Positions 1 through 15,309 of a DNA stretch of 25,658 nucleotides are shown one piece after another (position 1 is the stretch's first letter; each line of letters begins with the position of its first letter). Made by a program: the position numbers and the translations under genes. The stretch is from a virus, in the IMG/VR virus record IMGVR_UViG_3300017714_000144, positions 1 to 25,658 of that record; one strand, written 5' to 3'. Under the pieces are notes generated by a model. That model saw nothing but the letters and a program-made list of their open reading frames with translations, was not told the DNA's origin and made no database searches.

Positions 1-430
1 TATATTGTTCTTTTTGCCACTCTGATACAAAAATAAATTTATCTGGGAAGAATATTTTATTATTTGTGTCCATTGAGGAATCATGAGATGTTTCTATTAA
101 AGAATAAGATCTATTTTGATTGTATAATTTTTTAGCAATTTCAAAATCCATAAAATACTCAGGGATTTCTTCTAAATGAATTACATCAGGTTGAATCTTA
201 TCTATAATATTAAAAAGTTCAGTTTTATCTTCACCTAAAACAAAAAAACGTTCAGATGGAATCATTTCCTGTAAACGATTTTTTTGAACAACTAGAACAC
301 CTCCAGTTAAATTATCCCATTCAATTAAATAAATTTCAAATTCATCTTTTATTAATTCTACTTTTTTAGTAAGATATTGTGGTAACCCTCCTGTTGATAA
401 ATGAGGTGCTATACAAAGCAATTTTTTCAT
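1..430 (-). CDS. Glycosyltransferase, GT-B type, N-terminal part (partial)
   Basis: The gene starts at the ATG complementary to 428-430 and is open to the left edge, giving 143 residues of the N-terminal domain. It shows the usual layout of a GT4-like glycosyltransferase N-terminal Rossmann domain: a first beta strand with a Gly-Gly loop (LLCIAPHLSTGGLPQYL, residues 4-20), a PDVIHLEE strand (81-88), an ETSHDSS segment (113-119) and the KFIFVSEWQKEQY stretch (131-143) that precedes the linker in this fold. The sugar-binding C-terminal domain lies outside the window. The enzyme would act in the host cytoplasm and transfer a sugar from an activated donor. Its place directly after two Ser/Thr-rich collagen-like fibre genes makes those proteins plausible acceptors, but this is inference. 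The upstream motif at 459-475 suggests it has its own late promoter. Confidence 0.8.
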   Translation of the reverse strand, partial: MKKLLCIAPHLSTGGLPQYLTKKVELIKDEFEIYLIEWDNLTGGVLVVQKNRLQEMIPSERFFVLGEDKTELFNIIDKIQPDVIHLEEIPEYFMDFEIAKKLYNQNRSYSLIETSHDSSMDTNNKIFFPDKFIFVSEWQKEQY

Positions 431-488: not shown

Positions 489-3400
489 CTATGGTTGAAT
501 CCATGCTGGTAGATAATAATCAATACCTCCAATTTGTACTATTACCCATCCTCTAGCTATTAAACCTGTATTATCAGGAACCTCTGGTTCAAAAAATCCC
601 CATACATCAGGGTTGTTTGATGCTGCTGTGAATGAGTGAGGTGTACCACCTCCACCACTACCACTTGTACCTGATGTACCTGGTGAACCCGAACCTGAAG
701 TACCATTTGAACCTTGAATGGAAGCTCCTGAAGTATTAGATTGTCCAGATGTACCAGCAGTACCTGTAGTTCCTGATGTATTAGAACCACCTGAATTACC
801 CCCCAAACCTGAAGTACCTGTTGATCCAGATGATCCACTTTTACCTGATGTTTTTGAAGCCCCAGTTGTACCTGCAGTACCACTTGATCCTGAAGTTCCA
901 TTTTTACCAGATGTACGAGAAGCACCTGTTGTACCTGAAGTACCTGAAGAACCAGATGTTCCTGATTTACCTGATGTTTTTGAAGCTCCAGTTGTACCTG
1001 CAGTACCTGAAGAACCTGATGTTCCTGCTTTTCCTGATGTACGAGAAGCACCTGTAGTACCTGATGTACCTGATGAACCAGATGTTTTACTTGAACCTGA
1101 AACACCTGCTATACCACTTGTACCTGTAGAACCACTTGTACCAGAAGTACCTGCTGTACCTCCTACACCTGAAGAACCTCCTGAACCTGATGTGCCGGAT
1201 TCTCCTGAAGAACCACTTGCACCTACTGTACCTGAAGTACCTGTAGAACCACTTGTACCTGATGTTTTACTTAATCCTGAAGCTCCTGAAATACCAGAAG
1301 TACCTGTAGAACCACTTGTACCTGAAGTACCTGAAGTTTTGCTTGCACCCGAAGAACCTGTAGAACCACTTGTACCTGAAGTACCTGAATTTCCTGATGT
1401 ACGAGAAGCACCTGTAGTACCTGATGTACCTGATGAACCAGAAGTACCACTTTTACCTGATGTTCTTGATGCACCAGTTGTACCTGAAGTTCCTGAAGAA
1501 CCTGAAGTACCTGATTTTCCTGAAGTTCTTGATGCACCAGTTGTACCTGAAGTTCCTGAAGAACCAGATGTTTTACTTGAACCAGATGCCCCTGAAATAC
1601 CAGAAGTACCTGTAGATGCTGATGTACCTGAAGTGCCTGATGTTTGGCTTGCACCTGAAGAACCTGTAGAACCACTTGTACCTGAAGTACCTGAATTTCC
1701 TGAAGTTCTTGATGCTCCTGTTGTACCTGATGTACCTGAAGAACCTGATGTTCCTGATTTTCCTGATGTACGAGAAGCACCTGTTGTTCCTGCAGTTCCT
1801 GAAGAACCTGATGTACCACTTTCACCTGAAGAACCTGAAGCACCTACTGTACCTGAAGTACCTGTTGAACCTGAAGAACCAGATGTTTTACTTGAACCAG
1901 ATGCCCCTGAAATACCAGAAGTACCTGTTGAACCTGATGTACCTGACTTTCCGGAAGTACCATTAGCACCTGAAGATCCTCCTGAACCTGAAGTACCTGA
2001 TTCTCCTGAAGAACCACTTGCACCTACTGTACCTGAAGTACCTGTTGAACCACTTGTACCACTTGTTTTACTTGAACCTGCAGCACCTGCTATACCACTT
2101 GTACCTGTAGATCCTGATGTACCCGCTGTACCTGAAGTACCTCCTACACCTGAAGAACCTGATGTACCACTTTCACCTGAAGAACCTGAAGCACCTACTG
2201 TACCTGAAGTACCTGTTGAACCTGATGTACCTGAAGTAGCACTTCCACCTGCAACACCTGCTATACCTGAAGTACCTGTTGAACCACTTGTACCTGAAGT
2301 ACCTGAAGTACCTCCTACACCTGAAGAACCTGAAGTGCCTGATTCACCTGAAGAACCACTTGCACCTACTGTACCACTTGTACCAGTTGAACCTGAAGTA
2401 CCTGATGTTTTACTTGATCCTGCAGCACCTGCTATACCTGAAGTACCTGTAGAACCACTTGTACCAGAAGTACCTGCTGTACCTCCTACACCTGAAGAAC
2501 CTCCTGAACCTGATGTGCCTGATTCTCCTGAAGAACCTGAAGCACCCCCTGTACCTGAAGTACCTGTTGAACCTGATGTTTTACTTAATCCTGAAGCTCC
2601 TGCTATACCAGAAGTACCTGTAGATCCTGATGTACCTGAAGTACCTGCTGTACCACCTATACCTGAAGATCCTCCTGAACCTGATGTGCCACTTTCACCT
2701 GAAGAACCTGAAGCACCTATTGTACCCGAAGTACCAGTTGAACCTGATGTTTTACTTAAACCTGAAGCTCCTGAAATACCACTTGTACCTGTTGAGCCAC
2801 TTGTACCAGAAGTACCTGAAGTACCTCCTACACCTGAAGATCCTCCTGAACCTGAAGTACCTGATTCTCCTGAAGAACCACTTGCACCTATTGTACCACT
2901 TGTACCAGTTGAACCTGATGTTTTACTTGAACCTGAAGCTCCACTTATACCTGAAGTACCATTTGAACCTGAAGTACCTGATGTAAATGATGTTCCTGAT
3001 GAACCTGAAGTACTTCCTGAAGTACCAGATGTTCCTGATTCTCCTGAAGAACCACTTGCACCTACTGTACCTGAAGTACCTGTTGAACCTGAAGTACCTG
3101 ATGTATTTGATATACCTCCAGCACCAGCTGAGCCTGAAGAACCTGAAGTTGTTGAATTACCTTGAGTACCTGATGTACCTGAATTACCATTAGAACCTGA
3201 TGTGCCCCCTATACCTGAAGAACCTGAGGTTCTACTTAAACCTGCAGTACCTGATGTTCCTGAAGTTCCAGAAGTTACATTACCTCCTGATGAACCTGAT
3301 GTACCATTTGATCCACCACCACCTCCAGATCCTCCTATAACTGAAACTACACGACCATCTTTATCAGTAGCTAAAACTCTATCTGTTCCTGGATCTGAAG

Positions 3401-3497
3401 TAGAACCTGTAGGGACACTTAAAAGGAACAAATCTTGTTTAAAAACTGATTGTCCTGGTGAATCTCGTCTACTGGAAAATTTTCTCTTTTCAGCCAT
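489..3497 (-). CDS. Collagen-like Gly-X-Y repeat fibre protein (1002 aa)
   Basis: Residues 1-54 are a charged, non-repetitive head (MAEKRKFSSRRDSPGQSVFK...), which could anchor the protein to the virion. A glycine linker leads into about 890 residues of Gly-X-Y triplets in which X and Y are almost always Ser, Thr or Ala, with essentially no proline. The last ~50 residues (952-1002) form a small tip rich in aromatic residues, with DVWGFF and a final LPAWIQP. The repeats are ordered in longer units: one of about 57 residues (containing GASGSSGESGTSG and GSTGTSGISGASG) and one of about 21 residues (TSGKSGTSGSSGTSGTTGASR), where K or R replaces a glycine at the junction. I infer a trimeric collagen-type fibre or a mucin-like stalk carrying a small adhesin. 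It sits between a terminator and the glycosyltransferase. No S74 chaperone domain is present, so folding must be helped otherwise. The exact role (tail fibre, head fibre, collar) is unknown. Confidence 0.85.
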   Translation of the reverse strand: MAEKRKFSSRRDSPGQSVFKQDLFLLSVPTGSTSDPGTDRVLATDKDGRVVSVIGGSGGGGGSNGTSGSSGGNVTSGTSGTSGTAGLSRTSGSSGIGGTSGSNGNSGTSGTQGNSTTSGSSGSAGAGGISNTSGTSGSTGTSGTVGASGSSGESGTSGTSGSTSGSSGTSFTSGTSGSNGTSGISGASGSSKTSGSTGTSGTIGASGSSGESGTSGSGGSSGVGGTSGTSGTSGSTGTSGISGASGLSKTSGSTGTSGTIGASGSSGESGTSGSGGSSGIGGTAGTSGTSGSTGTSGIAGASGLSKTSGSTGTSGTGGASGSSGESGTSGSGGSSGVGGTAGTSGTSGSTGTSGIAGAAGSSKTSGTSGSTGTSGTVGASGSSGESGTSGSSGVGGTSGTSGTSGSTGTSGIAGVAGGSATSGTSGSTGTSGTVGASGSSGESGTSGSSGVGGTSGTAGTSGSTGTSGIAGAAGSSKTSGTSGSTGTSGTVGASGSSGESGTSGSGGSSGANGTSGKSGTSGSTGTSGISGASGSSKTSGSSGSTGTSGTVGASGSSGESGTSGSSGTAGTTGASRTSGKSGTSGSSGTSGTTGASRTSGNSGTSGTSGSTGSSGASQTSGTSGTSASTGTSGISGASGSSKTSGSSGTSGTTGASRTSGKSGTSGSSGTSGTTGASRTSGKSGTSGSSGTSGTTGASRTSGNSGTSGTSGSTGSSGASKTSGTSGTSGSTGTSGISGASGLSKTSGTSGSTGTSGTVGASGSSGESGTSGSGGSSGVGGTAGTSGTSGSTGTSGIAGVSGSSKTSGSSGTSGTTGASRTSGKAGTSGSSGTAGTTGASKTSGKSGTSGSSGTSGTTGASRTSGKNGTSGSSGTAGTTGASKTSGKSGSSGSTGTSGLGGNSGGSNTSGTTGTAGTSGQSNTSGASIQGSNGTSGSGSPGTSGTSGSGGGGTPHSFTAASNNPDVWGFFEPEVPDNTGLIARGWVIVQIGGIDYYLPAWIQP
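648..3335 (-). repeat. Tandem-repeat tract encoding Gly-X-Y triplets, array 2
   Basis: Nearly the whole tract is built from 9-nt units of the kind GGT-ACT-TCA or GGT-ACA-AGT, combined in larger units of about 171 bp and 63 bp. Serine is encoded by both TCA and AGT (and TCT) at equivalent positions, so the DNA copies have diverged while the amino acid is kept. Such tracts are prone to length change by slippage. Confidence 0.9.
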
Positions 3498-3523
3498 TTA
3501 AGGTCAATTGATTTATTTTATGG

Positions 3524-3535
3524 TGATAAATATTA
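3524..3535 (-). promoter_or_regulatory. Candidate late promoter of the 1002-aa fibre gene
   Basis: The sense strand reads TAATATTTATCA, 26 nt before the ATG at 3497 and just downstream of the terminator at 3542-3561. It matches the motif found before seven other transcription units in the window, with C for A at position 11. Confidence 0.5.
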
Positions 3536-3541
3536 AAATAA

Positions 3542-3561
3542 GAAAGGGCGTTAGCCCCTCC
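3542..3561 (-). terminator. Intrinsic terminator after the adhesin operon
   Basis: In the sense strand GGAGGGGC and GCCCTTTC form an 8-bp stem (with two G-U pairs) around a TAAC loop, followed by TTATTTT. It lies 24 nt after the stop codon of the 49-aa gene and just before the candidate promoter of the 1002-aa fibre gene. The U tract is interrupted, so efficiency may be moderate. Confidence 0.6.
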
Positions 3562-3584
3562 AAATCTTATTTAAGAATAAAAAA

Positions 3585-3734
3585 TTATTTTTTAGTAGAT
3601 TTTTTAAGGAGTTTTTTTCTTAATTCTTCATTACTTATAAAGGTTGATTGTGAAAATTCTTCTAAAGTTAATCTTATAACTGGTTTACCACTAGTTTTTA
3701 TTTTTTCTTCTATTTCAGGTGTTGATTTTATCAT
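3585..3734 (-). CDS. Small basic protein (49 aa), unknown function
   Basis: The 150-base frame ATG (3732-3734) to TAA (3585-3587) encodes a 49-residue protein beginning MIKSTPEIEEKIKTSGKPVI and ending in a lysine-rich tail (RKKLLKKSTKK). I accept it because it fills the otherwise empty gap after the 75-aa gene (27 nt before it), shares strand and A-rich leader with its neighbours, and is followed directly by a terminator. It has no signal peptide or membrane segment. The middle (VIRLTLEEFSQSTFISNEEL) looks like a short strand plus helix; the basic tail could bind nucleic acid or an acidic protein. I recognise no family. Being last in the fibre operon, it may be a small accessory or chaperone of fibre assembly, but there is no direct evidence. 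Confidence 0.6.
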   Translation of the reverse strand: MIKSTPEIEEKIKTSGKPVIRLTLEEFSQSTFISNEELRKKLLKKSTKK

Positions 3735-3761
3735 ATTATTTTTATTTTTTATTAAGCCAAG

Positions 3762-3989
3762 TTAGGGTTCAACCCAAATAAAATCCCCATCATAGAGGGT
3801 ACTTGTACTACCATTTCCCCAATCTAAAGTGATATAGTTTTCATTTAAATTAATTACTGGTAATTCATTTTCTGTTAGACTACCAGTATAATATTGTTGA
3901 AGGATAGAACCATTATACCCCCAAACATCCATATCTTCTTCTTCAAATTGAATAAGAGAACCACTATTTAAATTTGTTAAAACTCCCAT
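3762..3989 (-). CDS. Small beta-rich virion-type protein (75 aa)
   Basis: This short acidic protein begins MGVLTNLNSGSLIQFEEEDM and is predicted by eye to be mostly beta strand, with NYITLDWGNGSTSTLYDGDF near its end. It carries DVWGYNG at residues 21-27 and finishes in FIWVEP. The C-terminal tip of the 1002-aa fibre also has DVWG and finishes in AWIQP, so the two may share a small fold. It follows the LamG-like gene after 2 nt and precedes the 49-aa gene, so it should be cotranslated with the adhesin. A GGAG sequence inside the upstream gene lies 7 nt before this ATG; it is one of the few Shine-Dalgarno-like sequences in the window. Function is unknown; a tip, cap or binding partner of a fibre is plausible. 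Confidence 0.7.
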   Translation of the reverse strand: MGVLTNLNSGSLIQFEEEDMDVWGYNGSILQQYYTGSLTENELPVINLNENYITLDWGNGSTSTLYDGDFIWVEP

Positions 3990-3991
3990 AA

Positions 3992-4948
3992 TTAAACTCC
4001 GTAATATGATCTTGTTGCATCTTTTAAATCTATCATATTTGCTGATGGTTGATCTGTATTAAATACATACCACCCTCCATAAATACCCATCCATTCTCTA
4101 GCTCCTGCTGCCATAGGGGATACTGTCCAAGGATCTTCACTTTGATAATCTAATGAACCTCCGGTTCCAGATAAAAAACTAGCACCTGCTTGCCAACCAT
4201 TCTGTATGTTCCAAATGTACATATAATTAGAGGTAGTTCCAATAGTAGTACTATTATCTTTACCTTGCCAAACTACAAAATTCCATGCACTTAGTTCTAC
4301 AGTACCAGAAGATTGAAAAGTCCTTCTATTAGTAGAACTAGTACCACCACCATCTCCTCGTAAGACTCTTATGCGATTTGATGTAGTAACATCCATTCTA
4401 TAACCCCTATAATCTCTAACCCCTCCATGAGGTATATCATTTCCTAAAACTGATGTTTGACCAGAACCATTCTCATTAAAGAAAAGCCAACCACACATTA
4501 CCATAGTTCCACTTTGTCCTTGTTTATAAGATTCCCCTGCGGAAACTGGATCATATTGACCATAAGCAAATGAACCTAAACCTGGATAATCCCAAGTGTT
4601 TGTTGGGGTGCCTGGATTACCCCCATTATTGGTATAGGGAACTCCCCCACCATTAACTCCAAAATAATCAGGGTTAAGATCTTGATATGTTTCAGCATCT
4701 GCTGTAACTGGGGGTGAAAAACGGAATGTCATAGCATCATGATCATAATTTTGCCAAGAACTCATATTAACTTGAGTCCCGGAACCACCAACAGTAGCAA
4801 ATGAGGGAGTACCTGAGTAGTCGTTATGCCCATATTGGGCTTGTCCTAAAGAAACGTTGTTTTGGTTAAACTGTTTTCCCATTTCTTTATAAAGACCATT
4901 ATTAGTAGCATCACCTCTTAAAAATAAATCCGTTGTTCCTAAAGGCAT
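3992..4948 (-). CDS. LamG/concanavalin-like adhesin, tail- or fibre-associated (318 aa)
   Basis: Residues 1-35 (starting MPLGTTDLFLRGDATNNGLY) resemble the short leader segments of phage tail proteins. Residues about 40-145 are rich in Gly, Asn, Pro and Tyr. From about 146 the sequence follows a LamG/concanavalin-A-like jelly roll: a strand with GTMVMCGWLFFNENG (147-161), SVLGND (166-171), YRMDVTTSNRIRVLRGDGG (183-201), and SAWNFVVWQGKDN (220-232), which matches the 'gkWhhvavv' strand of LamG domains, then MYIWN (243-247). Such domains bind glycans, so this is a candidate receptor-binding protein. The ATG overlaps the stop codon of the 2386-aa fibre by one base (TAATG), which indicates translational coupling and roughly matched production of the two. 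The family call rests on pattern reading alone. Confidence 0.65.
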   Translation of the reverse strand: MPLGTTDLFLRGDATNNGLYKEMGKQFNQNNVSLGQAQYGHNDYSGTPSFATVGGSGTQVNMSSWQNYDHDAMTFRFSPPVTADAETYQDLNPDYFGVNGGGVPYTNNGGNPGTPTNTWDYPGLGSFAYGQYDPVSAGESYKQGQSGTMVMCGWLFFNENGSGQTSVLGNDIPHGGVRDYRGYRMDVTTSNRIRVLRGDGGGTSSTNRRTFQSSGTVELSAWNFVVWQGKDNSTTIGTTSNYMYIWNIQNGWQAGASFLSGTGGSLDYQSEDPWTVSPMAAGAREWMGIYGGWYVFNTDQPSANMIDLKDATRSYYGV

Positions 4949-7900
4949 TATTTATTATCTATTTTAGTATTTAATTCTTTAATAGCTTCAATTAACAGTG
5001 CTACTAATTTTTCGTATTTAACTGCTTTATACCCATTATCTCTAGTATTTACTAATTCAGGTAATACTTTTTCAATTTCTTGGGCAATAACTCCAACATC
5101 ATGTCCTGTATATGAAGATTGTTTATTATTCCAATCAAACTCATACCCACCAATTTGGTTAAGTTTTTCTAATGAATTGGTAATAGGAGTTACATTATCT
5201 TTAAATCTTCTATCTGATGAATAGAATGCAATAATATCACCTGTTGCTCTTAATTCACCACTAACTGTCATTACGTTAGTAGTATTATTAACTGTAACAA
5301 AACTAACTGATGATACTTGAGTTGCCGAATCGGTTTTAACTAAGAAATCTGGGGAGTTTGCAAATGCACCACCACTAATACCACTTGTACCATTTATACT
5401 TGTACCTGAAGTTCCTGCAACACCTGTTGTACCTGAAGTACCATTATTTCCGCTTTGTCCATTTGTACCTGCGTTACCTGAAGAACCGTTTGTACCTGAT
5501 GTACCTGAAGTACGGCTTACACCATTTACACCATGATTACCTGCAGTACCATTTGTACCTGATGTACCTGATGTACCTGAAGTAAAGGATCCTGAACCAC
5601 TTGTTCCTTTTACCCCTGTAGTACCAGAAGTTCCTGAAGTTCCTGAAGTTCCTGTAGTTTTACTTGCACCTGAAGTACCTGCTGTTGATCCAGTTGTTCC
5701 TGAAGTACCATTTTTACCTGAGGTACCTGAAGTTTTGCTTTGTCCTGAGGTACCTGCTGTACCACTTGTACCTGATGTAAATGATCCTGAACCACTTACA
5801 CCATTATTACCTGAAGTACCGTTTGTACCTGATGTACCTGAAGTTCGACTTGCACCTGAAGCCCCCTTATTACCTGTAGTACCATTTGAACCTGAAGTAC
5901 CTGAAGTACCTGAAGTTTTATTAGCTGCTCCACTAGTAGCATTAACCCCGGTAGTTCCTGAATTTCCTGAAGTACCTGAAGTACCTGAGGTTTTACTTTG
6001 TCCTGAAGTACCGTTTGTAGCACCTGTAGTACCTGAAGTACCATTTTTACCTGAAGTACCATTAGTACGGCTTACACCCGAAGTACCTGCAGTACCACTT
6101 GTACCTGATGTAAATGCTCCTGAACCACTTTGTCCTGCTGCTCCATTATTACCTGTTGTACCCGAAGTACCATTTGTACCTGAAGTTTTGCTTAAACCTG
6201 AACCTCCTGCATTACCTGTTGTACCTGAAGTACCGTTTGTACCTGAAGTTTTACTTAGACCTGAACCTCCTGCATTACCTGAAGTACCTGAATTACCTGT
6301 TGTACCACTAGTACCATTAGTACCACTTGTTTTACTTAAACCTGATTGACCAGCTGCTCCAGCATTACCTGTAGTTCCGTTTGAACCATTAGTACCTGAA
6401 GTTTTGCTTACACCACTTTGTCCTGCTGCTCCAGCAGCACCTGTTGAACCATTTGTACCATTAGTACCTGAAGTTTTACTTGCTCCACTTTGACCAGCAT
6501 TACCATTGTTACCTGTAGTACCTGAAGTACCATTAGTTCCACTTGTTTTGCTTAAGCCTGAACCTCCTGCATTACCTGTTGTACCACTAGTACCATTTGT
6601 ACCACTTGTTTTACTTAAGCCTGATTGACCAGCGTTTCCTGCAGCACCTGTTGTACCATTTGAACCATTAGTTCCAGAGGTTTTACTTGCTCCTGATTGA
6701 CCTGCATTACCATTATTACCTGTTGAACCATTTGTACCATTTGTACCTGAGGTTTTACTTAAACCTGATTGACCAGCTGCTCCAGTATTTCCAGTTGTAC
6801 CTGAAGTACCATTTGTACCACTTGTTTTACTTAAACCTGAACCTCCTGCGTTACCTGAAGTACCTGAGTTACCTGTAGTACCTGATGTACCATTTGTACC
6901 TGAAGTTTTACTTACCCCACTTTGACCAGCATTACCTGCTGCTCCTGTAGTACCATTTGAACCATTAGTTCCTGAGGTTTTACTTGCACCACTTTGTCCT
7001 GCTACTCCAGCTGCTCCTGTTGAACCATTTGTACCATTAGTACCTGAGGTTTTGCTTAAACCTGATTGACCAGCATTTCCATTATTACCTGTTGTACCTG
7101 AAGTACCATTTGTACCTGAGGTTTTGCTTAAACCTGAACCACCAGCATTACCTGAAGTACCTGAGTTACCTGTAGTACCTGAGGTACCGTTTGTACCACT
7201 AGTTTTACTTAAACCTGATTGACCAGCGTTTCCAGCTGCTCCTGTAGTACCATTTGAACCATTAGTTCCTGAAGTAGCACTTGCTCCTGATTGACCAGCA
7301 TTTCCATTATTTCCTGTTGAACCTGAAGTACCGTTTGTACCTGAGGTTTTGCTTAATCCACTTTGTCCTGCGTTACCTGAAGTACCTGAGTTACCTGTAG
7401 TACCTGAGGTACCATTTGTACCTGATGTTTTGCTTAAACCTGATTGACCAGCATTTCCAGCTGCGCCTGTAGTTCCGTTTGAACCATTTGTACCTGATGT
7501 AGCACTTAATCCACTTTGCCCTGCGTTACCTGCAGCACCTGTTGTACCATTTGAACCATTTGTACCTGAAGTAGCACTAACACCTGATTGACCTGCATTA
7601 CCATTATTTCCATTTGAACCATTAGTACCTGAAGTACCTGAGGTTTTACTTAATCCACTTTGTCCAGCATTTCCTGAAGCACCTGTTGAACCTGAAGTAC
7701 CATTTGTACCTGATGTTTTACTTAAACCTGATTGACCAGCATTTCCATTATTTCCAGTAGTACCATTTGAACCATTAGTTCCTGAAGTAGCACTTAAACC
7801 ACTTTCTCCTGCTACACCTGCATTACCAGTTGAACCTGAAGTACCACTAGTTCCTGATGTTTTACTTTCACCACCTTGACCTGCATTTCCTGATGAACCC

Positions 7901-10900
7901 GTGGTACCAGATGTACCACTTGTAGCACTAGATTCACTTTCACCAGCTTCACCTGCTGAACCTGTTGTTCCTGAAGAACCACTAGTTCCTGATGTTTTAC
8001 TTAAATTACTTGCTCCAGCATCTCCTGCTGAACCTGTTGTACCTGATGAACCTGAAGTACCAGATGTTTTACTTTCACCACCTTGACCAGCATTACCATT
8101 TGAACCTGTAGTACCACTTGTACCTGAAGTATTACTTAATGCACTTTGTCCTCCATCTCCAGCAGTACCATTTGAACCTGTTGTTCCTGATGATCCTGAT
8201 GTAGCTGAAATACCTGAAGTACCTGATTCACCACTTGTACCTGAACCTGCTCCTGTACCGCTTGAACCTGTAGTACCACTTGTACCTGCAGTACCTGAAG
8301 TACTACTTAAATTACTAGCACCTGCTTCACCTGCTGAACCTGTTGTACCACTTGAACCAGAAGTTCCTGATGTTTTACTTTCACCACCTTGACCAGCATT
8401 ACCATTTGAACCTGTAGTACCACTTGTACCTGAGGTAGCACTTAAAGCACTTGCTCCAGCATCTCCTGCTGAACCAGTTGTTCCTGATGAACCTGAAGTA
8501 CCTGAAGTTTGGCTTAAATTACTTTCACCTGCTTCACCTGCTGAACCAGTTGTACCTGATGATCCACTAGTCCCACTAGTAGCACTTAAATTACTTGCTC
8601 CAGCATCTCCTGCTGAACCTGTAGTACCTGAAGTACCACTTGTACCACTTGTTTTACTTAATGCACTAGCACCTGCTTCACCTGCTGAACCTGTTGTACC
8701 TGATGATCCTGAAGTTCCTGATGTTTTACTTAAACTACTTTCCCCAGATGTACCATCAACACCACTTGTACCTGAACTTCCTGTTGATCCAGAAGTACCT
8801 GATGTTTTACTTTCCCCACTTGTACCTGCTACACCATCAGCTCCTTGTGAACCTGAAGTACCTGAAGAACCTGATGTTGCTGAGATACCTGAAGTGCCAC
8901 TAGCACCTGAAGTACCAGAACCAGCTCCAGTTCCTGAAGAACCTGTTGTACCACTTGATCCTGCTGTTCCTGATGTATTACTTATATTACTTTCACCAGC
9001 TGCACCTGCTGAACCAGTTGTACCTGAAGAACCACTAGTTCCTGATGTTTGACTTAAATTACTAGCACCTGCTTCACCTACACTACCTGTTGTTCCTGAT
9101 GTGCCTGATGTACCCGATGTTTTACTATCACCACTTTCTCCAGCTTCACCTGCTGAACCTGTTGTACCACTTGAACCAGAAGTACCTGAAGTCATACTTT
9201 GGTTACTTGCTCCATGTGATCCTGCAGTTCCTGTAGATCCAGATGTACCTGAAGTACCAGATGTTTTACTATTACCACCTTGACCAGCTTCACCATTTGA
9301 ACCTGTTGTTCCTGATGAACCACTAGTTCCACTAGTAGCACTTAAATTACTTGCTCCTGCTTCACCTGCTGAACCCGTAGTACCTGAAGAACCTGATGTT
9401 CCTGATGTTTTACTATCACCACCTTGACCAGCTTCACCATTTGAACCTGTTGTTCCTGATGAACCTGAAGTACCTGAAGTAGTACTTTCACCACCTTGAC
9501 CTGCAATTCCTGAACTACCTGTTGAACCAGAAGTTCCTGAAGTACTGCTTAATGCACTTTGACCTCCATCTCCAGCAGTACCATTTGAACCGCTTGTACC
9601 TGATGTGCCTGATGTATTACTTTCTTCACTTGAACCTGCATCACCTGATGATCCAGTTGTACCACTTGAACCAGAAGTTCCTGAAGTAGCACTATTACCT
9701 CCTACTCCTCCAGCTCCTTGTGAACCTGAAGAACCTGAAGAACCTGAAGTAGCACTTATACCTGAAGTACCTGATTCACCACTTGTACCTGCTCCTGCAC
9801 CCGTTCCTGAAGAACCTGTTGTACCACTTGAACCTGCAGTACCTGATGTTTTACTTTCTCCACTTTGACCAGCTTCACCTGCTGAGCCTGTAGTACCTGA
9901 TGAACCGCTTGTGCCTGAAGTAGCACTTAATTCACTTTCACCTGCAGCTCCCGTTGATCCTGTTGTACCTGAAGAGCCTGAAGTACCTGATGTTCTACTT
10001 TCACCACCTTGACCTGCTTCTCCATTTGAACCTGTAGTACCTGATGTACCACTTGTATTGCTTAAATTACTTGCTCCAGCATCTCCTGCTGAACCTGTTG
10101 TACCTGAAGTACCTGAAGTACCACTTGTATCACTTATATTACTTTCACCTGCTGTACCAGCATTACCAGTTGTACCTGAACTACCATTTGAACCAGATGT
10201 TCCTGAAGTACCACTTTCACCACTTGTACCTGCTACTCCATCAGCTCCTTGTGAACCTGAAGTACCAGCTGAACCTGAAGTAGCACTTATACCTGAAGTA
10301 CCTGATTCACCACTTGTACCTGCTCCAGCACCTGTTCCTGAAGAACCTGTTGTACCTGAGGAACCAGCAGTACCTGAAGTAGCTGAATTACCACTTTCTC
10401 CAAGACTACCTGCTGTACCTGTAGTACCTGAAGAACCTGATGTTCCTGAGGTAGCACTTTGATTGCTTGCTCCAGCATCTCCTGCTGAACCTGTAGTACC
10501 TGAAGTACCACTTGTACCTGATGTTTGACTTAAATTACTTTCACCTGCAGTTCCTAAAGAACCAGATGAACCTGAGGAGCCACTAGTTCCAGATGTTTTA
10601 CTTTCATTACTTAAACCAGCACTACCTGTTGTACCTGTAGTACCTGAGGTGCCTGATGTGCCTGATGTTTTACTATCTCCACTTGTACCATTTACTCCTG
10701 AACTACCTGATGAACCAGAAGTTCCTGATGAACCTGATGTGCTATCATCACCTGAAGTACCTACAGAACCTGATGTCCCTGAAGTACCTGATGATCCACT
10801 AAACCCACTAAAACCATCTTCACCCGCAGATCCATTAGTACCTGTTGATCCTGAAGTTCCTGAAGTAGCTGAATTACCACTTGAACCATTTGCACCTGAA

Positions 10901-12108
10901 CTACCATTTGAACCTGATGTTGCAGATACACCTGATGTACCACTAGCACCTGAACTACCTGCTCCTGCACCTGTTCCTGAAGAACCTGTTGTACCACTTG
11001 AACCTGCTGATCCTGATGTTTTACTTTCTCCGCTTTGTCCGGCTTCACCTGCTGAACCTGTAGTACCACTTGAACCAGAAGTACCTGATGTATTACTTAA
11101 ATTACCTTGACCTCCATCTCCAGCTGAACCTGTAGTACCGCTTGTACCTGATGTACCTGATGTACCACTTTCTTCACTTTCTCCTCCATTACCTGAAGAA
11201 CCAGCAGTTCCTGTTGTTCCTGAAGAACCACTAGTTCCACTAGTAGCACTTAAATTACTTTCACCTGCTGCGCCTACTGAACCTGTTGTACCACTTGATC
11301 CTGCAGTACCACTTGTACCACCTTGACCAGCTTGACCTGCTGAACCTGAACTACCAGATGAACCTGAACTACCTGATGTATCACTTCCACCACTTGAACC
11401 TACAGTACCTGTTGTTCCGGATTCACCAGATGTACCTGATTGACCATTTGAACCATTTTCTCCTGAAGTACCTGAAGTACCAGCAGAACCTGAAGATCCT
11501 GATTGACCTGCATCTCCAGTACTACCTGATGAACCTGATGTTCCTGAAGTAGCACTTTGGTTGCTTCCTCCTGCTTCACCTGCTGAACCTGTAGTACCTG
11601 AAGAACCACTAGTTCCTGATGTTTTACTTTCTCCTGCTTGTCCTACTTCACCAGATGAACCTGAACTACCAGATGAACCTGATGAACTTGCTAAAGCTGA
11701 TTCACCTGATGATCCTCCAGTTCCAGATGAACCAGAAGCTCCACCACTTGTACCTGATGTACCAGTTGTTCCTGAAAATCCACTTGAACCTGATGATCCA
11801 TTTGATCCACTTAATCCTGAAGTACCTGCTTGACCTGAAGAGCCAATATTACCTGAAGTACCAGCACTACCAGAAGAACCTGATGAACCCGTAGTACCTG
11901 CAGAACCTGATGTTCCTGAAGTACCTGAAGACCCAGATGAGCCTGAAGAGCCTGAAGAGCCTGAAGAGCCTGATCCCCCAGAACTACCAGTAGAACCTGA
12001 GCTACCTGCAGAACCTGAAGAACCAGATTGTCCTGATTCGCCATTATTGCTTCCTTGACCTTGAAATGAAGCTATTGGTACTTGGTCTAAAAATCTTATA
12101 TTGGCCAT
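4948..12108 (-). CDS. Giant collagen-like fibre with C-terminal S74 autoprocessing chaperone (2386 aa)
   Basis: Domains in order: a short N-terminal segment, MANIRFLDQVPIASFQGQG (1-19), probably for docking; about 2,225 residues of Gly-X-Y triplets (19-2243); a non-repetitive stretch with NSPDFLVKTDSATQVSSVSF (about 2251-2270); and a peptidase S74/intramolecular chaperone domain (about 2285-2386). The last contains the hallmark SDRRFK motif (Ser2298, Asp2299, Lys2303), a GVIAQEIEKVLPELV segment and a helical end. In this family the domain trimerises the fibre and then cuts itself off near that Ser, here leaving about 89 residues to be released. The triplets are saturated with Ser, Thr, Ala and Asn and contain no proline. 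A glycine is missing about every 24 residues, often in the form LSKTSG. Three repeat types follow one another (Ala/Glu-rich, Asn-rich, mixed with FTSG hinges). It follows gp15 and is coupled to the LamG-like gene. Confidence 0.9.
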   Translation of the reverse strand: MANIRFLDQVPIASFQGQGSNNGESGQSGSSGSAGSSGSTGSSGGSGSSGSSGSSGSSGSSGTSGTSGSAGTTGSSGSSGSAGTSGNIGSSGQAGTSGLSGSNGSSGSSGFSGTTGTSGTSGGASGSSGTGGSSGESALASSSGSSGSSGSSGEVGQAGESKTSGTSGSSGTTGSAGEAGGSNQSATSGTSGSSGSTGDAGQSGSSGSAGTSGTSGENGSNGQSGTSGESGTTGTVGSSGGSDTSGSSGSSGSSGSAGQAGQGGTSGTAGSSGTTGSVGAAGESNLSATSGTSGSSGTTGTAGSSGNGGESEESGTSGTSGTSGTTGSAGDGGQGNLSNTSGTSGSSGTTGSAGEAGQSGESKTSGSAGSSGTTGSSGTGAGAGSSGASGTSGVSATSGSNGSSGANGSSGNSATSGTSGSTGTNGSAGEDGFSGFSGSSGTSGTSGSVGTSGDDSTSGSSGTSGSSGSSGVNGTSGDSKTSGTSGTSGTTGTTGSAGLSNESKTSGTSGSSGSSGSLGTAGESNLSQTSGTSGTSGTTGSAGDAGASNQSATSGTSGSSGTTGTAGSLGESGNSATSGTAGSSGTTGSSGTGAGAGTSGESGTSGISATSGSAGTSGSQGADGVAGTSGESGTSGTSGSNGSSGTTGNAGTAGESNISDTSGTSGTSGTTGSAGDAGASNLSNTSGTSGTTGSNGEAGQGGESRTSGTSGSSGTTGSTGAAGESELSATSGTSGSSGTTGSAGEAGQSGESKTSGTAGSSGTTGSSGTGAGAGTSGESGTSGISATSGSSGSSGSQGAGGVGGNSATSGTSGSSGTTGSSGDAGSSEESNTSGTSGTSGSNGTAGDGGQSALSSTSGTSGSTGSSGIAGQGGESTTSGTSGSSGTTGSNGEAGQGGDSKTSGTSGSSGTTGSAGEAGASNLSATSGTSGSSGTTGSNGEAGQGGNSKTSGTSGTSGSTGTAGSHGASNQSMTSGTSGSSGTTGSAGEAGESGDSKTSGTSGTSGTTGSVGEAGASNLSQTSGTSGSSGTTGSAGAAGESNISNTSGTAGSSGTTGSSGTGAGSGTSGASGTSGISATSGSSGTSGSQGADGVAGTSGESKTSGTSGSTGSSGTSGVDGTSGESSLSKTSGTSGSSGTTGSAGEAGASALSKTSGTSGTSGTTGSAGDAGASNLSATSGTSGSSGTTGSAGEAGESNLSQTSGTSGSSGTTGSAGDAGASALSATSGTSGTTGSNGNAGQGGESKTSGTSGSSGTTGSAGEAGASNLSSTSGTAGTSGTTGSSGTGAGSGTSGESGTSGISATSGSSGTTGSNGTAGDGGQSALSNTSGTSGTTGSNGNAGQGGESKTSGTSGSSGTTGSAGDAGASNLSKTSGTSGSSGTTGSAGEAGESESSATSGTSGTTGSSGNAGQGGESKTSGTSGTSGSTGNAGVAGESGLSATSGTNGSNGTTGNNGNAGQSGLSKTSGTNGTSGSTGASGNAGQSGLSKTSGTSGTNGSNGNNGNAGQSGVSATSGTNGSNGTTGAAGNAGQSGLSATSGTNGSNGTTGAAGNAGQSGLSKTSGTNGTSGTTGNSGTSGNAGQSGLSKTSGTNGTSGSTGNNGNAGQSGASATSGTNGSNGTTGAAGNAGQSGLSKTSGTNGTSGTTGNSGTSGNAGGSGLSKTSGTNGTSGTTGNNGNAGQSGLSKTSGTNGTNGSTGAAGVAGQSGASKTSGTNGSNGTTGAAGNAGQSGVSKTSGTNGTSGTTGNSGTSGNAGGSGLSKTSGTNGTSGTTGNTGAAGQSGLSKTSGTNGTNGSTGNNGNAGQSGASKTSGTNGSNGTTGAAGNAGQSGLSKTSGTNGTSGTTGNAGGSGLSKTSGTNGTSGTTGNNGNAGQSGASKTSGTNGTNGSTGAAGAAGQSGVSKTSGTNGSNGTTGNAGAAGQSGLSKTSGTNGTSGTTGNSGTSGNAGGSGLSKTSGTNGTSGTTGNAGGSGLSKTSGTNGTSGTTGNNGAAGQSGSGAFTSGTSGTAGTSGVSRTNGTSGKNGTSGTTGATNGTSGQSKTSGTSGTSGNSGTTGVNATSGAANKTSGTSGTSGSNGTTGNKGASGASRTSGTSGTNGTSGNNGVSGSGSFTSGTSGTAGTSGQSKTSGTSGKNGTSGTTGSTAGTSGASKTTGTSGTSGTSGTTGVKGTSGSGSFTSGTSGTSGTNGTAGNHGVNGVSRTSGTSGTNGSSGNAGTNGQSGNNGTSGTTGVAGTSGTSINGTSGISGGAFANSPDFLVKTDSATQVSSVSFVTVNNTTNVMTVSGELRATGDIIAFYSSDRRFKDNVTPITNSLEKLNQIGGYEFDWNNKQSSYTGHDVGVIAQEIEKVLPELVNTRDNGYKAVKYEKLVALLIEAIKELNTKIDNK
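4951..5253 (-). other. Peptidase S74 (ICA) domain region of the giant fibre
   Basis: This segment encodes roughly residues 2286-2386. The SDxRxK motif lies at 5200-5217; its Ser codon (TCA) is complementary to 5215-5217. The downstream part has alternating helix and turn, with GHDVGVIAQEIEKVLPEL and KYEKLVALLIEAIKEL, as in endosialidase and neck-appendage C-terminal chaperones. Both key residues of the Ser-Lys pair are present, so self-cleavage is expected. Confidence 0.85.
5380..12054 (-). repeat. Tandem-repeat tract encoding Gly-X-Y triplets, array 1
   Basis: This 6.7-kb tract is built from 9-nt triplet codes and a higher-order unit of mostly 72 nt (24 residues), sometimes 63 or 81 nt. Three blocks can be told apart. 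About 12054-7790 encodes units like TSGTSGSSGTTGSAGEAG. About 7790-6130 encodes units like TSGTNGTSGTTGNNGNAGQ. About 6130-5380 has units separated by GSG(S/A)FTSG. Units within a block are more alike than between blocks, which suggests growth by local duplication. Confidence 0.9.
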
Positions 12109-12128
12109 TTATAAATCTTTGTATTTGG

Positions 12129-12140
12129 GTATAAATATTA
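12129..12140 (-). promoter_or_regulatory. Candidate late promoter of the giant fibre operon
   Basis: The sense strand reads TAATATTTATAC, 20 nt before the fibre ATG, in the 35-bp gap after gp15. It matches the motif ahead of other units in the window. A related GATTTATAA lies directly against the ATG, which itself has no Shine-Dalgarno sequence. Confidence 0.5.
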
Positions 12141-12143
12141 AAA

Positions 12144-13079
12144 CTAAGATATAGTTGTAGTTCTTTTTTTAGCTTCTTGGTTAGAAACATCAGTAGTTAC
12201 TATTCTACCACCATCATTAGTACCCTCAAAGAATTCTTCATTTTCAATAACTTCCATAGAAAATATTATTTTTGATTTTTCATTAAATTTACTTACAGAA
12301 ACTAGTGATTTTTGTACTACTTCTGGTATTATATATCCGTTTAATTTTATATTAAATGTTGTCTTTACTGATCTTTCTGCCCCTTTAGTAGTTTCTACTA
12401 CATTAGTATAATCATTAATCATTGCCCTAAACTTAAAACGTTCAGGATCTCCCCAATATGAATCAGAAGCATAATTAATTGCTTCAACTATTTTGTTCAT
12501 TTGATCTACATAATATGTAGATATAGCGCAGCTATATGTAATATTTACATAATCAGGATAAACAACAGCTACAAATTGCTTTGTAGGTATTCTATTATTT
12601 AATACGGTAAAATTATCATAAGCATTTTGTCCAGAATATCCTTTTTGGAAAATACCAAAATTATTAGGGTTATTAGAATCTATTTTATTACCTATGCTTC
12701 TTACTTTTTGAATATTATCACGTTTAAACATGATCATAGGGAACATTATTTTACCGTTTTTATCGCGGTATTTACCGTCTTTTTGGAACGATTTCCATCT
12801 TTCCGGTGAACCATATATAATTGGAACTTCAATGCGTTCACCATTTTGAACTACAGAAGGTTGAATTACATTTTTAAAATAATAAATAATGGCTTCATCA
12901 ATATCTTGTATACCAACTGTAAATGGTTTTGTGCTATCTCCCCTCCAAGAAAGTTGTGTACCTCTATTAGGAACAGTAGATAAATTAGGATTACCCATTT
13001 GAGGATCATAAGGTTTTATCAAACTATTTGATATCTCTTTTTGGGATTTTGGGGTTGGTTTATTTTGTTTTTGCGCCAT
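12144..13079 (-). CDS. 15: gp15-like tail terminator / tail sheath stabiliser
   Basis: The 311-aa protein follows the gp14-like gene with a one-base overlap. Several stretches line up, in order, with what I recall of T4 gp15: ERIEVPIIYGSPERWKSFQ (like RVPITYASKEH), a MFPMIMFKRDNI strand (like ILPRINLHL), VNITYSCAISTYYVDQMNKIVEAIN (like IYELSIFTRYEDDMFQIVEQ) and SVKTTFNIKLNGYIIPE (like IEWSLTFEVNGWMYPP). gp15 forms a hexameric ring that caps the finished tail and binds the neck. The N-terminal ~35 residues are polar and Pro/Lys-rich, probably disordered. The gene order gp13-gp14-gp15 is the same as in T4, which supports the call. The last residues (EAKKRTTTIS) are polar as in T4. Confidence 0.75.
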   Translation of the reverse strand: MAQKQNKPTPKSQKEISNSLIKPYDPQMGNPNLSTVPNRGTQLSWRGDSTKPFTVGIQDIDEAIIYYFKNVIQPSVVQNGERIEVPIIYGSPERWKSFQKDGKYRDKNGKIMFPMIMFKRDNIQKVRSIGNKIDSNNPNNFGIFQKGYSGQNAYDNFTVLNNRIPTKQFVAVVYPDYVNITYSCAISTYYVDQMNKIVEAINYASDSYWGDPERFKFRAMINDYTNVVETTKGAERSVKTTFNIKLNGYIIPEVVQKSLVSVSKFNEKSKIIFSMEVIENEEFFEGTNDGGRIVTTDVSNQEAKKRTTTIS

Positions 13080-13627
13080 TATAATCTTTGTAATGTTATT
13101 CCTACTTTATCAGATGGAACATAATGAGTATTACAGATAATTTGTTGATTCCATCCAAATTTATCAAGATCTCCTTCAAATGGGTTTACCATATTAGGAT
13201 AATCTGGGTTTTTACCTACAAAATATCTATTAGCATTTGTATCATCTACCTCAAAATATGATTTATTATATAATATAATATCTCCTGCTTGTGGTACTAA
13301 ATCAGCTCCGTATAATGCAGTATCAACATTAAAATCTTTTGCCTTACCTAATAAATCATCTCTTAAAAATCTAAATTGAATATTCCATTCAAAATCTACC
13401 CCATATTCAGTATCAGGATTAGTTTGGTCTTCTCTTTCTATTAAACAATTTAATAAAACAGGACCCATATAAAATTTAGTCCCAGAAGCTTCACCATAGA
13501 TATTAGTTTTAGTTTCTTCTAATTCAAATTTATAGAAAGCTGCTTGTTGGGAAATTACATTTCCCATCAACTCACGGTTTACAGTTCTAAGTAAACTTAT
13601 GTCTCTTGCAGCTCCAAATAATGCCAT
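13079..13627 (-). CDS. 14: Neck protein gp14-like
   Basis: This 182-aa protein is shorter than T4 gp14 (256 aa) but has the features of the cyanophage-type neck protein: YKFELEETKTNIYGEASG near the start, a middle EYGVDFEWNIQFRFLRDDL, then AGDIILYNKSYFEVDD and a C-terminal NPFEGDLDKFGWNQQIICNTHY. It belongs to the ring that joins the filled head to the tail. It overlaps the gp15-like gene by one base and follows the gp13-like stop by one base, so the three are read from one transcript. The call rests on motif recall and on gene order; the exact length difference to T4 is real. Confidence 0.75.
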   Translation of the reverse strand: MALFGAARDISLLRTVNRELMGNVISQQAAFYKFELEETKTNIYGEASGTKFYMGPVLLNCLIEREDQTNPDTEYGVDFEWNIQFRFLRDDLLGKAKDFNVDTALYGADLVPQAGDIILYNKSYFEVDDTNANRYFVGKNPDYPNMVNPFEGDLDKFGWNQQIICNTHYVPSDKVGITLQRL

Positions 13628-13628
13628 A

Positions 13629-14807
13629 TTATCCTATATAAATTGTAAAGGGTACTCTACCTAATTCTTTTTCTAAAAAGTCAGATTCTTGTGTTCTTCT
13701 TTCTAATAATTTTTCTCTTGAGGTTTCATCAAGATATGCTCTTAATCTATCTATTAGTGCTTCTTTTTCTGCTGTAGCAGCAGTTATTAAATCACTTTGG
13801 TTTAATGTTACATCTGCCCCTGGAATTGGAACTGTACTATATTTACCTCTTACATATCCTAACATTTCTTTACATAATGCTAATGTATATTCAAATATCC
13901 AACTTCTACCTACAGAATTAATATCTGAATATATGGGGTTTACATAAGGTACATCACTAATAACTTTAATTCTTCCATTACCATCAACAAAAGCAGCATC
14001 AGCTTCTTCTGATTTTAAAAGATATTGAATTTTTAATTTAGATTTATAAGTACCCCCAGCTATATTACGTGGGATTGGGAATATTCTTAGTTTATTATTA
14101 TGTACTTCAAACGAAAAATTAGATCTTCTAACTGTATCATTAAATTCAATAGCTTGAACGGTTGCAATAGTATAATTAACAGGCATTAATACAAAATCAA
14201 GTCCTGCAGCTGAGTAGGCTCCAAACCCAAATGTATCTAATCCTGCTGATATATCTCCTCCTGCAGCACCACCACCTGCAAAAGGATCATAATATCTTAC
14301 AATAGCAGGGGTTGCTTCAAAAAATACTCTCATAATTTGAAGATCACCTTTTTTATAATGAGGGATATTTTTATCAGCCCATTCGTTTAGATCGTATTCT
14401 TGTTTTCCTTCTTCTAGGTCAATCATACCATCATACCAATCAACATTTCCTCCTGAACCTGCTTCTACACCATATTGTTCTGAAATAGCAATTATACGTG
14501 CTAAAGTTGGGGTAATGATTTTTTCATTAATATCAACAGTATCATCAGCACCTTCTAAAGAAAGATAATTTTCTCTTACTTTATAAGCATAGATTTCATT
14601 ACCATACACAGTAACAGCTTCTTCAAAAGCGGTATAAAATTGAATATCTTGAAGTTCAATATCTACAATAGGATATCCTAATCTTTGTGCACAAAATTTT
14701 GCTACTTTATCTGCATCTTTTTCAAATTCTAAATCATTATCATAAAACCCAAAAGGTGTTTCTCCTGGGTGGAATGAACTTGATCCTGGCCATATTGGTA
14801 TATTCAT
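13629..14807 (-). CDS. 13: Neck protein gp13-like
   Basis: This 392-aa protein starts MNIPIWPGSSSFHPGETPFG, followed by a stretch typical of gp13 of T4-like marine phages (GFYDNDLEFEKDADKVAKF, then LGYPIVDIELQDIQFYTAFEEAV, residues about 44-66). gp13 works with gp14 to close the head after packaging and to join it to the tail. It is longer than T4 gp13 (309 aa); part of the extra length is a Gly/Ala-rich loop (FAGGGAAGGDISAGLDTFGFG, about 176-196). The C-terminus (about 340-385) is a charged helix. It lies 9 nt after the 150-aa gene and 1 nt before the gp14-like gene. Its position next to gp14- and gp15-like genes is the strongest support. Confidence 0.7.
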   Translation of the reverse strand: MNIPIWPGSSSFHPGETPFGFYDNDLEFEKDADKVAKFCAQRLGYPIVDIELQDIQFYTAFEEAVTVYGNEIYAYKVRENYLSLEGADDTVDINEKIITPTLARIIAISEQYGVEAGSGGNVDWYDGMIDLEEGKQEYDLNEWADKNIPHYKKGDLQIMRVFFEATPAIVRYYDPFAGGGAAGGDISAGLDTFGFGAYSAAGLDFVLMPVNYTIATVQAIEFNDTVRRSNFSFEVHNNKLRIFPIPRNIAGGTYKSKLKIQYLLKSEEADAAFVDGNGRIKVISDVPYVNPIYSDINSVGRSWIFEYTLALCKEMLGYVRGKYSTVPIPGADVTLNQSDLITAATAEKEALIDRLRAYLDETSREKLLERRTQESDFLEKELGRVPFTIYIG

Positions 14808-14816
14808 GATATTTTA

Positions 14817-15269
14817 TTAAGCGTTTACAAGCACGTATTCTACATCTATACTAGCACTAATAGCAAAAACATCAACTGATGTTAAGGCTGAACCTGAAAA
14901 CCCACCATTAAATTGACTACCAGTAGCATTTGCACTTGCCCACATAAGTGAGGAAGTTGGTGTTAAATCTTGGGTCCAATAAGCTCCATCTGAGTTTTCA
15001 AAAGTAACTGCTAAAGATGCTGAATTATCTAAATTAGTAATTCTAGCATATTTTACACTACTTGAAGGAAATAAACCAGCTCCGGGGTTGGGACCATTAA
15101 AGTCTATTAAATTGATAGAAGTTGTTTCAGGACAAGTTACTATTCTTCTATCTACATTAGTTACATCAGCAACTCTATAGAAAGTTTCATTAATAGTTCT
15201 TACATTTTTAATAACGTGCTCTTCTTTTATTTTAACTTGAAAAGTACTAGGTGTTAGTGTAGATGCCAT
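14817..15269 (-). CDS. Putative virion structural protein, beta-rich (150 aa)
   Basis: The protein starts MASTLTPSTFQVKIKEEHVI and looks like an all-beta fold. The middle has SVKYARITNLDNSASLAVTF, and the end has SSLMWASANATGSQFNGGF before a final strand pair ending IDVEYVLVNA. Proteins with this 'LTPSTFQVKI' start and 'ITNLD' strand are, as I recall, found among structural genes of marine T4-like phages, but I know no assigned function. It is the first gene of the unit that continues into gp13, gp14 and gp15, so a neck, decoration or completion role is plausible. The leader is very short: the candidate promoter ends only 9 nt before the ATG. No Shine-Dalgarno sequence is present. Confidence 0.6.
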   Translation of the reverse strand: MASTLTPSTFQVKIKEEHVIKNVRTINETFYRVADVTNVDRRIVTCPETTSINLIDFNGPNPGAGLFPSSSVKYARITNLDNSASLAVTFENSDGAYWTQDLTPTSSLMWASANATGSQFNGGFSGSALTSVDVFAISASIDVEYVLVNA

Positions 15270-15278
15270 GCTTTTTTG

Positions 15279-15292
15279 GTTATAAATATTAG
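15279..15292 (-). promoter_or_regulatory. Candidate late promoter of the neck operon
   Basis: The sense strand reads CTAATATTTATAAC, ending 9 nt before the ATG of the 150-aa gene in the 40-bp gap after phoH. If transcription starts a few bases downstream of the motif, as for T4 late promoters, the mRNA would be nearly leaderless. Confidence 0.5.
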
Positions 15293-15309
15293 AAAGGGTT
15301 GTTTAATTA

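What the first reader, a model, noticed from the sequence alone, without database searches (positions are those of the whole stretch)
4948..12108. A 2386-residue proline-free collagen-like fibre ending in a self-cleaving chaperone
About 2,225 residues are Gly-X-Y triplets with Ser, Thr, Ala or Asn in X and Y and no proline at all, followed by an S74 chaperone with an intact SDRRFK motif. At the collagen rise of about 0.29 nm per residue, a fully triple-helical trimer would be about 630 nm long, several times the T4 long tail fibre. Collagens normally need proline or hydroxyproline for stability, so either the fold is different, or the fibre is stabilised by another feature such as glycosylation or low habitat temperature.
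Basis: partly seen in the sequence, partly recalled or inferred. Interest (0 to 1): 0.75.

Follow-up and report, generated by a model that had tools for sequence, protein, structure and literature searches.

The report
Giant proline-free collagen-like phage tail fibre
A marine T4-like virus of bacteria encodes a very long, collagen-patterned tail fibre without proline, and across its relatives such fibre genes sit beside enzymes that attach sugars to serines of proteins, which suggests that these phages build sugar-coated collagen fibres.

Summary
It is not uninterrupted Gly-X-Y. In the 1,875-residue core, 102 of 625 triplets lack Gly. The breaks keep register, and 61% are spaced exactly 24 residues apart (random 5%), usually with an aliphatic residue two positions before the break. 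Gly codons are under strong purifying selection (1 of 224 changed, 52 synonymous); 45 break sites vary but none becomes Gly; indels are 24, 24 and 3 residues.

It is not unique. Dozens of phage contigs carry proline-free Gly-X-Y ORFs, one complete at about 2,943 aa. The main new result is context. The ORF cut by the window's end (2-430) is the start of a glycosyltransferase. In relatives, fibres are followed by three glycosyltransferases including a TibC-family protein O-heptosyltransferase: 28/50 proline-free-fibre records against 1/98 controls, and 21/27 against 1/32 among contigs of at least 35 kb.

Best reading: trimeric collagen-like tail fibres, segmented every 24 residues, whose serines the phage itself O-glycosylates. 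Triple helix and glycosylation are inferred, not shown.

The parts
4948..12108 (-). fib1: 2386-aa Gly-X-Y tail fibre with C-terminal S74 domain
   Evidence: Pfam Collagen 511 bits, S74 62 bits
12043..12108 (-). Short N-terminal segment MANIRFLDQVPIASFQGQGSNN (residues 1-22), conserved in relatives; probable virion attachment end (inferred)
   Evidence: MAN[IV]R[FY]LDQV found in 35 contig stretches
6118..11742 (-). Core repeat, residues 123-1997: 625 triplets in one phase, 102 Gly-less, 24-residue super-repeat, no proline
5371..6117 (-). Distal Gly-X-Y part, residues 1998-2246, with phase shifts
   Evidence: per-30-residue phase
5218..5370 (-). Short non-repeat tip, residues 2247-2297, expected C-terminus of the mature fibre after S74 cleavage
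   Evidence: cleavage inferred from the S74 family
4951..5217 (-). S74 chaperone/autoprotease, residues 2298-2386, Ser2298 and Lys2303
   Evidence: best solved relative 6F45_A, phage S16 gp37
3992..4948 (-). 318-aa protein, 1-nt overlap with the fib1 stop; candidate distal adhesin in the gp38 position
   Evidence: no family; a 319-aa protein with a similar start (MPLSTTNLYLRG) sits in the same place in L501
3762..3989 (-). 75-aa protein following the candidate adhesin; a 74-aa protein with a similar start lies next to it in L501
489..3497 (-). fib2: second Gly-X-Y fibre, 1002 aa, 747-aa proline-free core, no S74
2..430 (-). First 143 aa of a glycosyltransferase, cut by the contig end
   Evidence: 66-77% identical to the N-termini of longer relatives; full-length relatives hit PF00534
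12144..13079 (-). gp15-like tail sheath stabiliser; upstream boundary of the fibre block
   Evidence: PF16724 26 bits (cut-off 25)

Best explanation
fib1 is a trimeric tail fibre of a T4-like myovirus whose nearest cultured relative infects Flavobacterium. A short N-terminal segment attaches it to the virion, a very long Gly-X-Y shaft follows, and the S74 domain registers three chains at the C-terminus and then cuts itself off. The shaft is collagen-like: Gly every third residue packs three polyproline-II strands. It is built from 24-residue modules of about seven normal triplets and one in-register Gly-less triplet, usually with an aliphatic residue two positions before it; the breaks probably act as hinges or small hydrophobic clasps. 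In place of proline, Ser residues, above all the Y-position Ser before Gly, are O-glycosylated by glycosyltransferases encoded directly downstream, including a TibC-type protein O-heptosyltransferase. This would stabilise, stiffen and hydrate the fibre. Shown: ORF, repeat geometry, selection, S74, gene linkage in relatives, conserved catalytic residues in the relatives' enzyme. Inferred: trimer, triple helix, glycosylation, host, and that this phage has the whole cassette, since the window holds only the start of its first gene.
For: Gly codons: 1/224 amino-acid changes with 52 synonymous, against 55/537 for X and Y; Fisher p 6e-8. Register is kept through breaks: Gly gaps of 3 (513), 6 (54) and 9 (23) dominate. 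Whole-module indels: 24, 24 and 3 aa, and 96 = 4x24 aa between two contigs otherwise 100% identical. Spacing of exactly 8 triplets 61% against 4.9% random, maximum 15.8% in 10,000 draws; the same spacing and the aliphatic at -2 in divergent phages L173, L204, L103, L275, L205. S74 and its dyad. TIGR04414 over cut-off in 28/50 proline-free-fibre records, 1/48 capsid-matched controls, 0/50 S74-matched controls; length-restricted to 35 kb or more, 21/27 against 1/32. The cassette lies next to or within about two genes of the fibre genes in relatives. L320's enzyme: 316.9 bits against a 200 cut-off, TibC E 2.7e-56 over the full length. Residues equivalent to TibC Asp110, Lys230, Arg286 and Trp305 are invariant in 11 phage copies, Thr226 being Ser. 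The only isolated phage among 4 TibC-positive records out of 50,697, Microcystis phage Mel-JY01, has a Ser/Thr-rich Gly-X-Y ORF one gene away.
Against: No structure: AlphaFold2 of one chain gave pLDDT about 40 in the repeat, uninformative for a trimer. Some relatives carry glycosyltransferase genes between gp15 and sheath with no Gly-X-Y gene there (L487-L491), and 22 of 50 fibre records show no TibC match, not all explained by short contigs. TibC itself was shown to modify Ser but not Thr. The donor sugar of the phage enzymes is unknown. The fibre records were sampled by sequence pattern and include near-identical contigs, so counts are not fully independent. The selection counts rest on two close relatives.
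Confidence: 0.58

Rival explanations
1. Collagen-like triple-helical fibre that needs no glycosylation. The glycosyltransferases modify something else, such as host surface glycans to block superinfection, or another virion protein.
For: Glycosyltransferases near phage tail genes have been read as modifiers of the host O-chain (PMC7029224). Related phages carry glycosyltransferase genes in the same locus without a Gly-X-Y gene.
Against: The linked enzyme belongs to a protein O-glycosyltransferase equivalog, not an LPS family, and tracks proline-free fibres. With no proline and few charges (106 in 1,875 residues) there is no other evident source of stability.
Confidence: 0.2
2. The repeat is not a triple helix but another polyproline-II assembly (polyglycine-II-type bundle), with the 24-residue breaks as turns.
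For: Gly-rich polyproline-II bundles occur in T-even phage adhesins such as S16 gp38 (PMC8409303), and S16 gp37 is the best solved relative of this S74 domain. Regular breaks every 24 residues could be turns.
Against: The bundle motif is given as GGX against GXX for collagen (PMC13243192); GG is rare here, 22 in 1,875 residues. Breaks keep the triplet register, which turns would not require. Some relatives have about 2,000 residues or more without a single break. S74 argues for parallel trimers.
Confidence: 0.12
3. A disordered, mucin-like, heavily glycosylated brush, with Gly only as spacer or acceptor context.
For: S+T 44% of the core and a linked protein O-glycosyltransferase.
Against: Strict triplet register over 1,875 residues and strong selection on Gly are not expected of a disordered brush.
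Confidence: 0.1

Closest known systems
T4-like long tail fibre distal subunits with S74 (Salmonella phage S16 gp37, PDB 6F45; PHROG 33119)
   Same: C-terminal S74 chaperone; followed by a small gene in the gp38 position
   Different: The shaft here is some 2,200 residues of proline-free Gly-X-Y
Collagen-like phage side-tail proteins of E. coli O157:H7 (EPclA; PMC3368898)
   Same: Trimeric phage tail collagen made in bacteria, no hydroxyproline
   Different: Those are rich in proline (48% of X) and charged residues; this one has no proline, few charges and regular Gly breaks
TibC/AAH autotransporter heptosyltransferases (BAHT family, TIGR04414; eLife 03714)
   Same: The phage enzymes of relatives score over the equivalog cut-off and keep the catalytic and sugar-binding residues
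   Different: Encoded in a phage tail block beside collagen-like fibres instead of beside an autotransporter; acceptor and donor untested
Mimivirus L230 and its collagen-like proteins (reviewed in PMC9614988)
   Same: A virus that glycosylates its own collagen-like protein
   Different: L230 acts on hydroxylysine; here Ser is the likely acceptor and lysine is scarce
Bacillus BclA exosporium collagen (PMC8968730)
   Same: Bacterial collagen with O-glycans thought to help stability
   Different: Spore protein, not a phage fibre

Membership tests
S74 intramolecular chaperone fibres | C-terminal S74 domain over the curated cut-off | tested here: met
   62.3 bits, cut-off 22
S74 intramolecular chaperone fibres | Ser/Lys dyad at the cleavage site | tested here: met
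   S2298 and K2303 invariant in 24 sequences
S74 intramolecular chaperone fibres | Autocleavage and trimer | not testable with these tools
   No biochemistry; single-chain model only
Collagen-like proteins (PF01391) | Gly at every third residue | tested here: met
   523/625 core triplets begin with Gly, one phase, strong selection; 102 in-register exceptions
Collagen-like proteins (PF01391) | Imino acids in X/Y (usual, not strictly defining) | tested here: not met
   No proline in the repeat
Collagen-like proteins (PF01391) | Triple helix | not testable with these tools
   Needs CD, melting or a trimer prediction
Gly-rich polyproline-II (polyglycine-II) bundles | GGX-rich strands | tested here: not met
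   22 GG in 1,875 residues
TibC/BAHT protein O-heptosyltransferases (linked gene in relatives) | TIGR04414 equivalog cut-off | tested here: met
   316.9 bits against 200 for L320; 28 records over cut-off
TibC/BAHT protein O-heptosyltransferases (linked gene in relatives) | Catalytic Asp110, Lys230, Arg286, Trp305 and the Cys cluster | tested here: met
   Equivalents D114, K236, R294, W313 and aligned Cys invariant in 11 copies
TibC/BAHT protein O-heptosyltransferases (linked gene in relatives) | Present in the window's own phage | tested here: inconclusive
   Contig ends after 143 aa of the first cassette gene; the sister contig ends inside fib2

The most novel reading that the evidence does not exclude
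Phages have evolved a proline-free collagen in which phage-encoded serine O-glycosylation by a TibC-type enzyme, together with a clasp every 24 residues, replaces proline and hydroxyproline as the source of triple-helix stability, giving tail fibres several hundred nanometres long.
Probability: 0.4. Interest if true: 0.87.

Novelty: new variant of a known kind. Interest (0 to 1): 0.72.

Why it matters
Collagen stability without imino acids is an old question, and phage collagens have mostly been noticed as short or proline-containing stretches. Here a widespread class of giant proline-free fibres is genetically tied to a protein O-glycosyltransferase family so far described for bacterial autotransporters. 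Glycosyltransferases near phage tail genes are usually read as tools for altering host LPS or protecting DNA; this gives a direct, testable alternative, that they coat the phage's own fibres. It also offers natural, length-modular collagen sequences with a 24-residue unit for biophysics and biomaterials.

Tried and rejected
AlphaFold2 of the 318-aa neighbour (pLDDT 29) and of the fib1 C-terminus (pLDDT 44): too poor to interpret, so no fold search was run. tblastn of repeat segments against phage records returns nothing, as expected with the low-complexity filter, so isolates cannot be surveyed that way. Scanning bacterial genomes with a degenerate repeat pattern gave mostly single scattered matches and was not pursued. 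A collagen-galactosyltransferase-like (GT25) domain in the ~900-aa glycosyltransferase was considered and dropped: sub-threshold in every copy where it appeared. Host-guest estimates of triple-helix melting were not made, because no table was found to cite. No paper found links phage collagen-like fibres with protein O-glycosylation, but the library lacks most subscription journals.
Full report
WHAT IS THERE. The reported protein is read on the minus strand, window 12108 to 4948, 2386 aa. Prolines lie only at 11, 2253, 2308 and 2350. Pfam gives Collagen over the repeat (511 bits) and Peptidase_S74 at residues 2298-2353 (62.3 bits, cut-off 22). Ser2298 and Lys2303 of SSDRRFK are invariant in 24 aligned sequences. 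A second contig, IMGVR_UViG_3300017743_000090, matches window 1555-15379 with 7 mismatches in 13,825 bases and no gap, so the length is not a quirk of one assembly.

THE REPEAT IS SEGMENTED. In the core (residues 123-1997) Gly holds one phase, but 102 of 625 triplets lack it. The breaks almost always keep register: distances between successive Gly are 3 (513), 6 (54) and 9 (23), with few others. Spacing between breaks is exactly 8 triplets in 61% of cases; random placement gives 4.9% on average and at most 15.8% in 10,000 draws. The consensus of a module reads T-S-G T-S-G [TS]-S-G T-T-G S-A-G x-A-G Q-S-G L-S-[K/A]. The position two before the break is Leu, Ile or Val in about 56% of modules. 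The same spacing and aliphatic position recur in phages with unrelated N-termini (L173, L204, L103, L275, L205), while other phages carry about 2,000 or more residues with no break at all (L282, L284). Breaks are therefore an option, not a necessity of the class. Shared ancestry of repeat units cannot be excluded as a cause of the common spacing.

SELECTION. Against relative L167 (same gene, about 92% identical), Gly codons show 1 amino-acid change in 224 with 52 synonymous changes. X and Y show 55 changes in 537 (Fisher p 6e-8). The 45 break sites show 10 changes, none to Gly. Indels are 24, 24 and 3 residues. Two near-identical contigs, L205 and L209, differ only by one 96-residue indel, four modules, a caution as well as a clue since repeat collapse in assembly is possible. 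The triplet geometry and the existence of breaks are thus both maintained.

SURROUNDINGS. The window carries a T4-like head and neck block: terminase fragment, portal, prohead protease, major head protein, PhoH-like, neck proteins and a gp15-like sheath stabiliser. The closest cultured relative by major capsid protein is Flavobacterium phage immuto (59%); the host of this phage is inferred, not known. After gp15 come fib1, a 318-aa protein whose start overlaps the fib1 stop by one base, a 75-aa protein, fib2 (1002 aa, a second proline-free Gly-X-Y protein) and the start of a glycosyltransferase cut by the contig end. In most relatives whose gp15-sheath interval is covered by the held pieces the two genes are a few hundred bases apart; the fibre block is an insertion there.

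THE GLYCOSYLTRANSFERASE CASSETTE. The 143-aa fragment at 2-430 is 77% and 66% identical to the starts of longer proteins in L307 and L320; full-length relatives hit PF00534 over its cut-off. In relatives the order is fibre(s), zero to two small genes, a ~900-aa glycosyltransferase, a ~316-aa one, a ~400-aa one, then tail sheath, with some additions (an FkbM methyltransferase). L502 keeps fibre and cassette together beside the capsid gene instead. The ~400-aa enzyme of L320 matches TIGR04414 (autotransporter O-heptosyltransferase, TibC/AAH) with 316.9 bits against a cut-off of 200, and the TibC crystal sequences over its full length at E 2.7e-56. Catalytic Asp110 and sugar-binding Lys230, Arg286 and Trp305 of TibC (named in eLife 03714) correspond to D114, K236, R294 and W313, invariant in 11 phage copies; Thr226 is Ser. 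In the best-matching crystal sequence position 110 reads Ala, presumably the catalytic mutant.

IS THE LINK REAL? TIGR04414 is over cut-off in 28 of 50 records with a long proline-free (or nearly proline-free) Gly-X-Y ORF, 1 of 48 records chosen by capsid relationship without such an ORF in the held piece (5 at E below 1e-3), and 0 of 50 records chosen by a related S74 domain. Among contigs of at least 35 kb it is 21/27 against 1/32 (counting the weak control match). Two fibre contigs from the window's phage group checked because they lacked the cassette, G073 and G078, end inside the fibre gene. Among 50,697 annotated phage records only four hold a TibC-like protein. The one isolated phage, Microcystis phage Mel-JY01, has a Ser/Thr-rich Gly-X-Y ORF one gene upstream; it crosses the record's end and is overlain by an annotated CDS on the other strand. 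Limits: the fibre set was drawn by sequence patterns and contains near-duplicates, and some relatives have glycosyltransferases in this locus with no Gly-X-Y gene beside them.

MECHANISM. Most likely three chains are aligned by S74 at the C-terminus and zip into a collagen-type helix that S74 then leaves. Half of all Y positions are Ser, and TibC is known to modify Ser (not Thr) in its own substrates. Glycosylation of these serines during late infection would take the stabilising role of proline. This step is inferred from gene linkage and family membership. The expected length is at most about 630 nm, less if the breaks bend or loosen the rod.

COMPARISON AND NOVELTY. Phage collagens are known; those of E. 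coli O157:H7 prophages are proline- and charge-rich (PMC3368898). Proline-free giant Gly-X-Y ORFs are common in the sampled contigs (96 of 127 distinct ORFs, pattern-biased), and one complete S74 example of about 2,943 aa exceeds the window's. A study of pelagimyophages noted glycosyltransferases by tail fibres and took them as O-chain modifiers (PMC7029224). Mimivirus L230 shows that a virus can glycosylate its own collagen (PMC9614988). No paper found joins these for phages. Hence: new variant of a known kind.

Noticed in passing
window 489-3497: A second proline-free Gly-X-Y protein without S74; homologues follow fib1 in L205, L307 and L320.
   Followed up: partly
window 3992-4948: 318-aa protein with no family match, translationally overlapping fib1; its place is taken by other genes (155+604 aa in L169, 111+119 aa in L307, none in L205), like a swappable adhesin.
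   Followed up: partly
L487-L491: Relatives with a different set of large glycosyltransferase and sugar-nucleotide genes between gp15 and sheath but no Gly-X-Y gene there.
   Followed up: partly
L517 (Microcystis phage Mel-JY01, 1-3052 and the record's end): Long Ser/Thr-rich Gly-X-Y ORF spanning the record ends, missed by the deposited annotation, which places a CDS on the opposite strand.
   Followed up: yes
L518 (LR756501, 735-kb uncultured phage genome): TibC-like and P0006-like glycosyltransferases in a 735-kb phage record, with no Gly-X-Y ORF within the ~30 kb examined.
   Followed up: no
L205 against L209: Two contigs differ only by a 96-residue (4 x 24) indel in the fibre: natural length variation or repeat collapse in assembly.
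   Followed up: partly
L282, L284: Uninterrupted proline-free Gly-X-Y runs of about 2,000-2,500 residues, a class without the 24-residue breaks; their records also hold TibC-like enzymes.
   Followed up: partly
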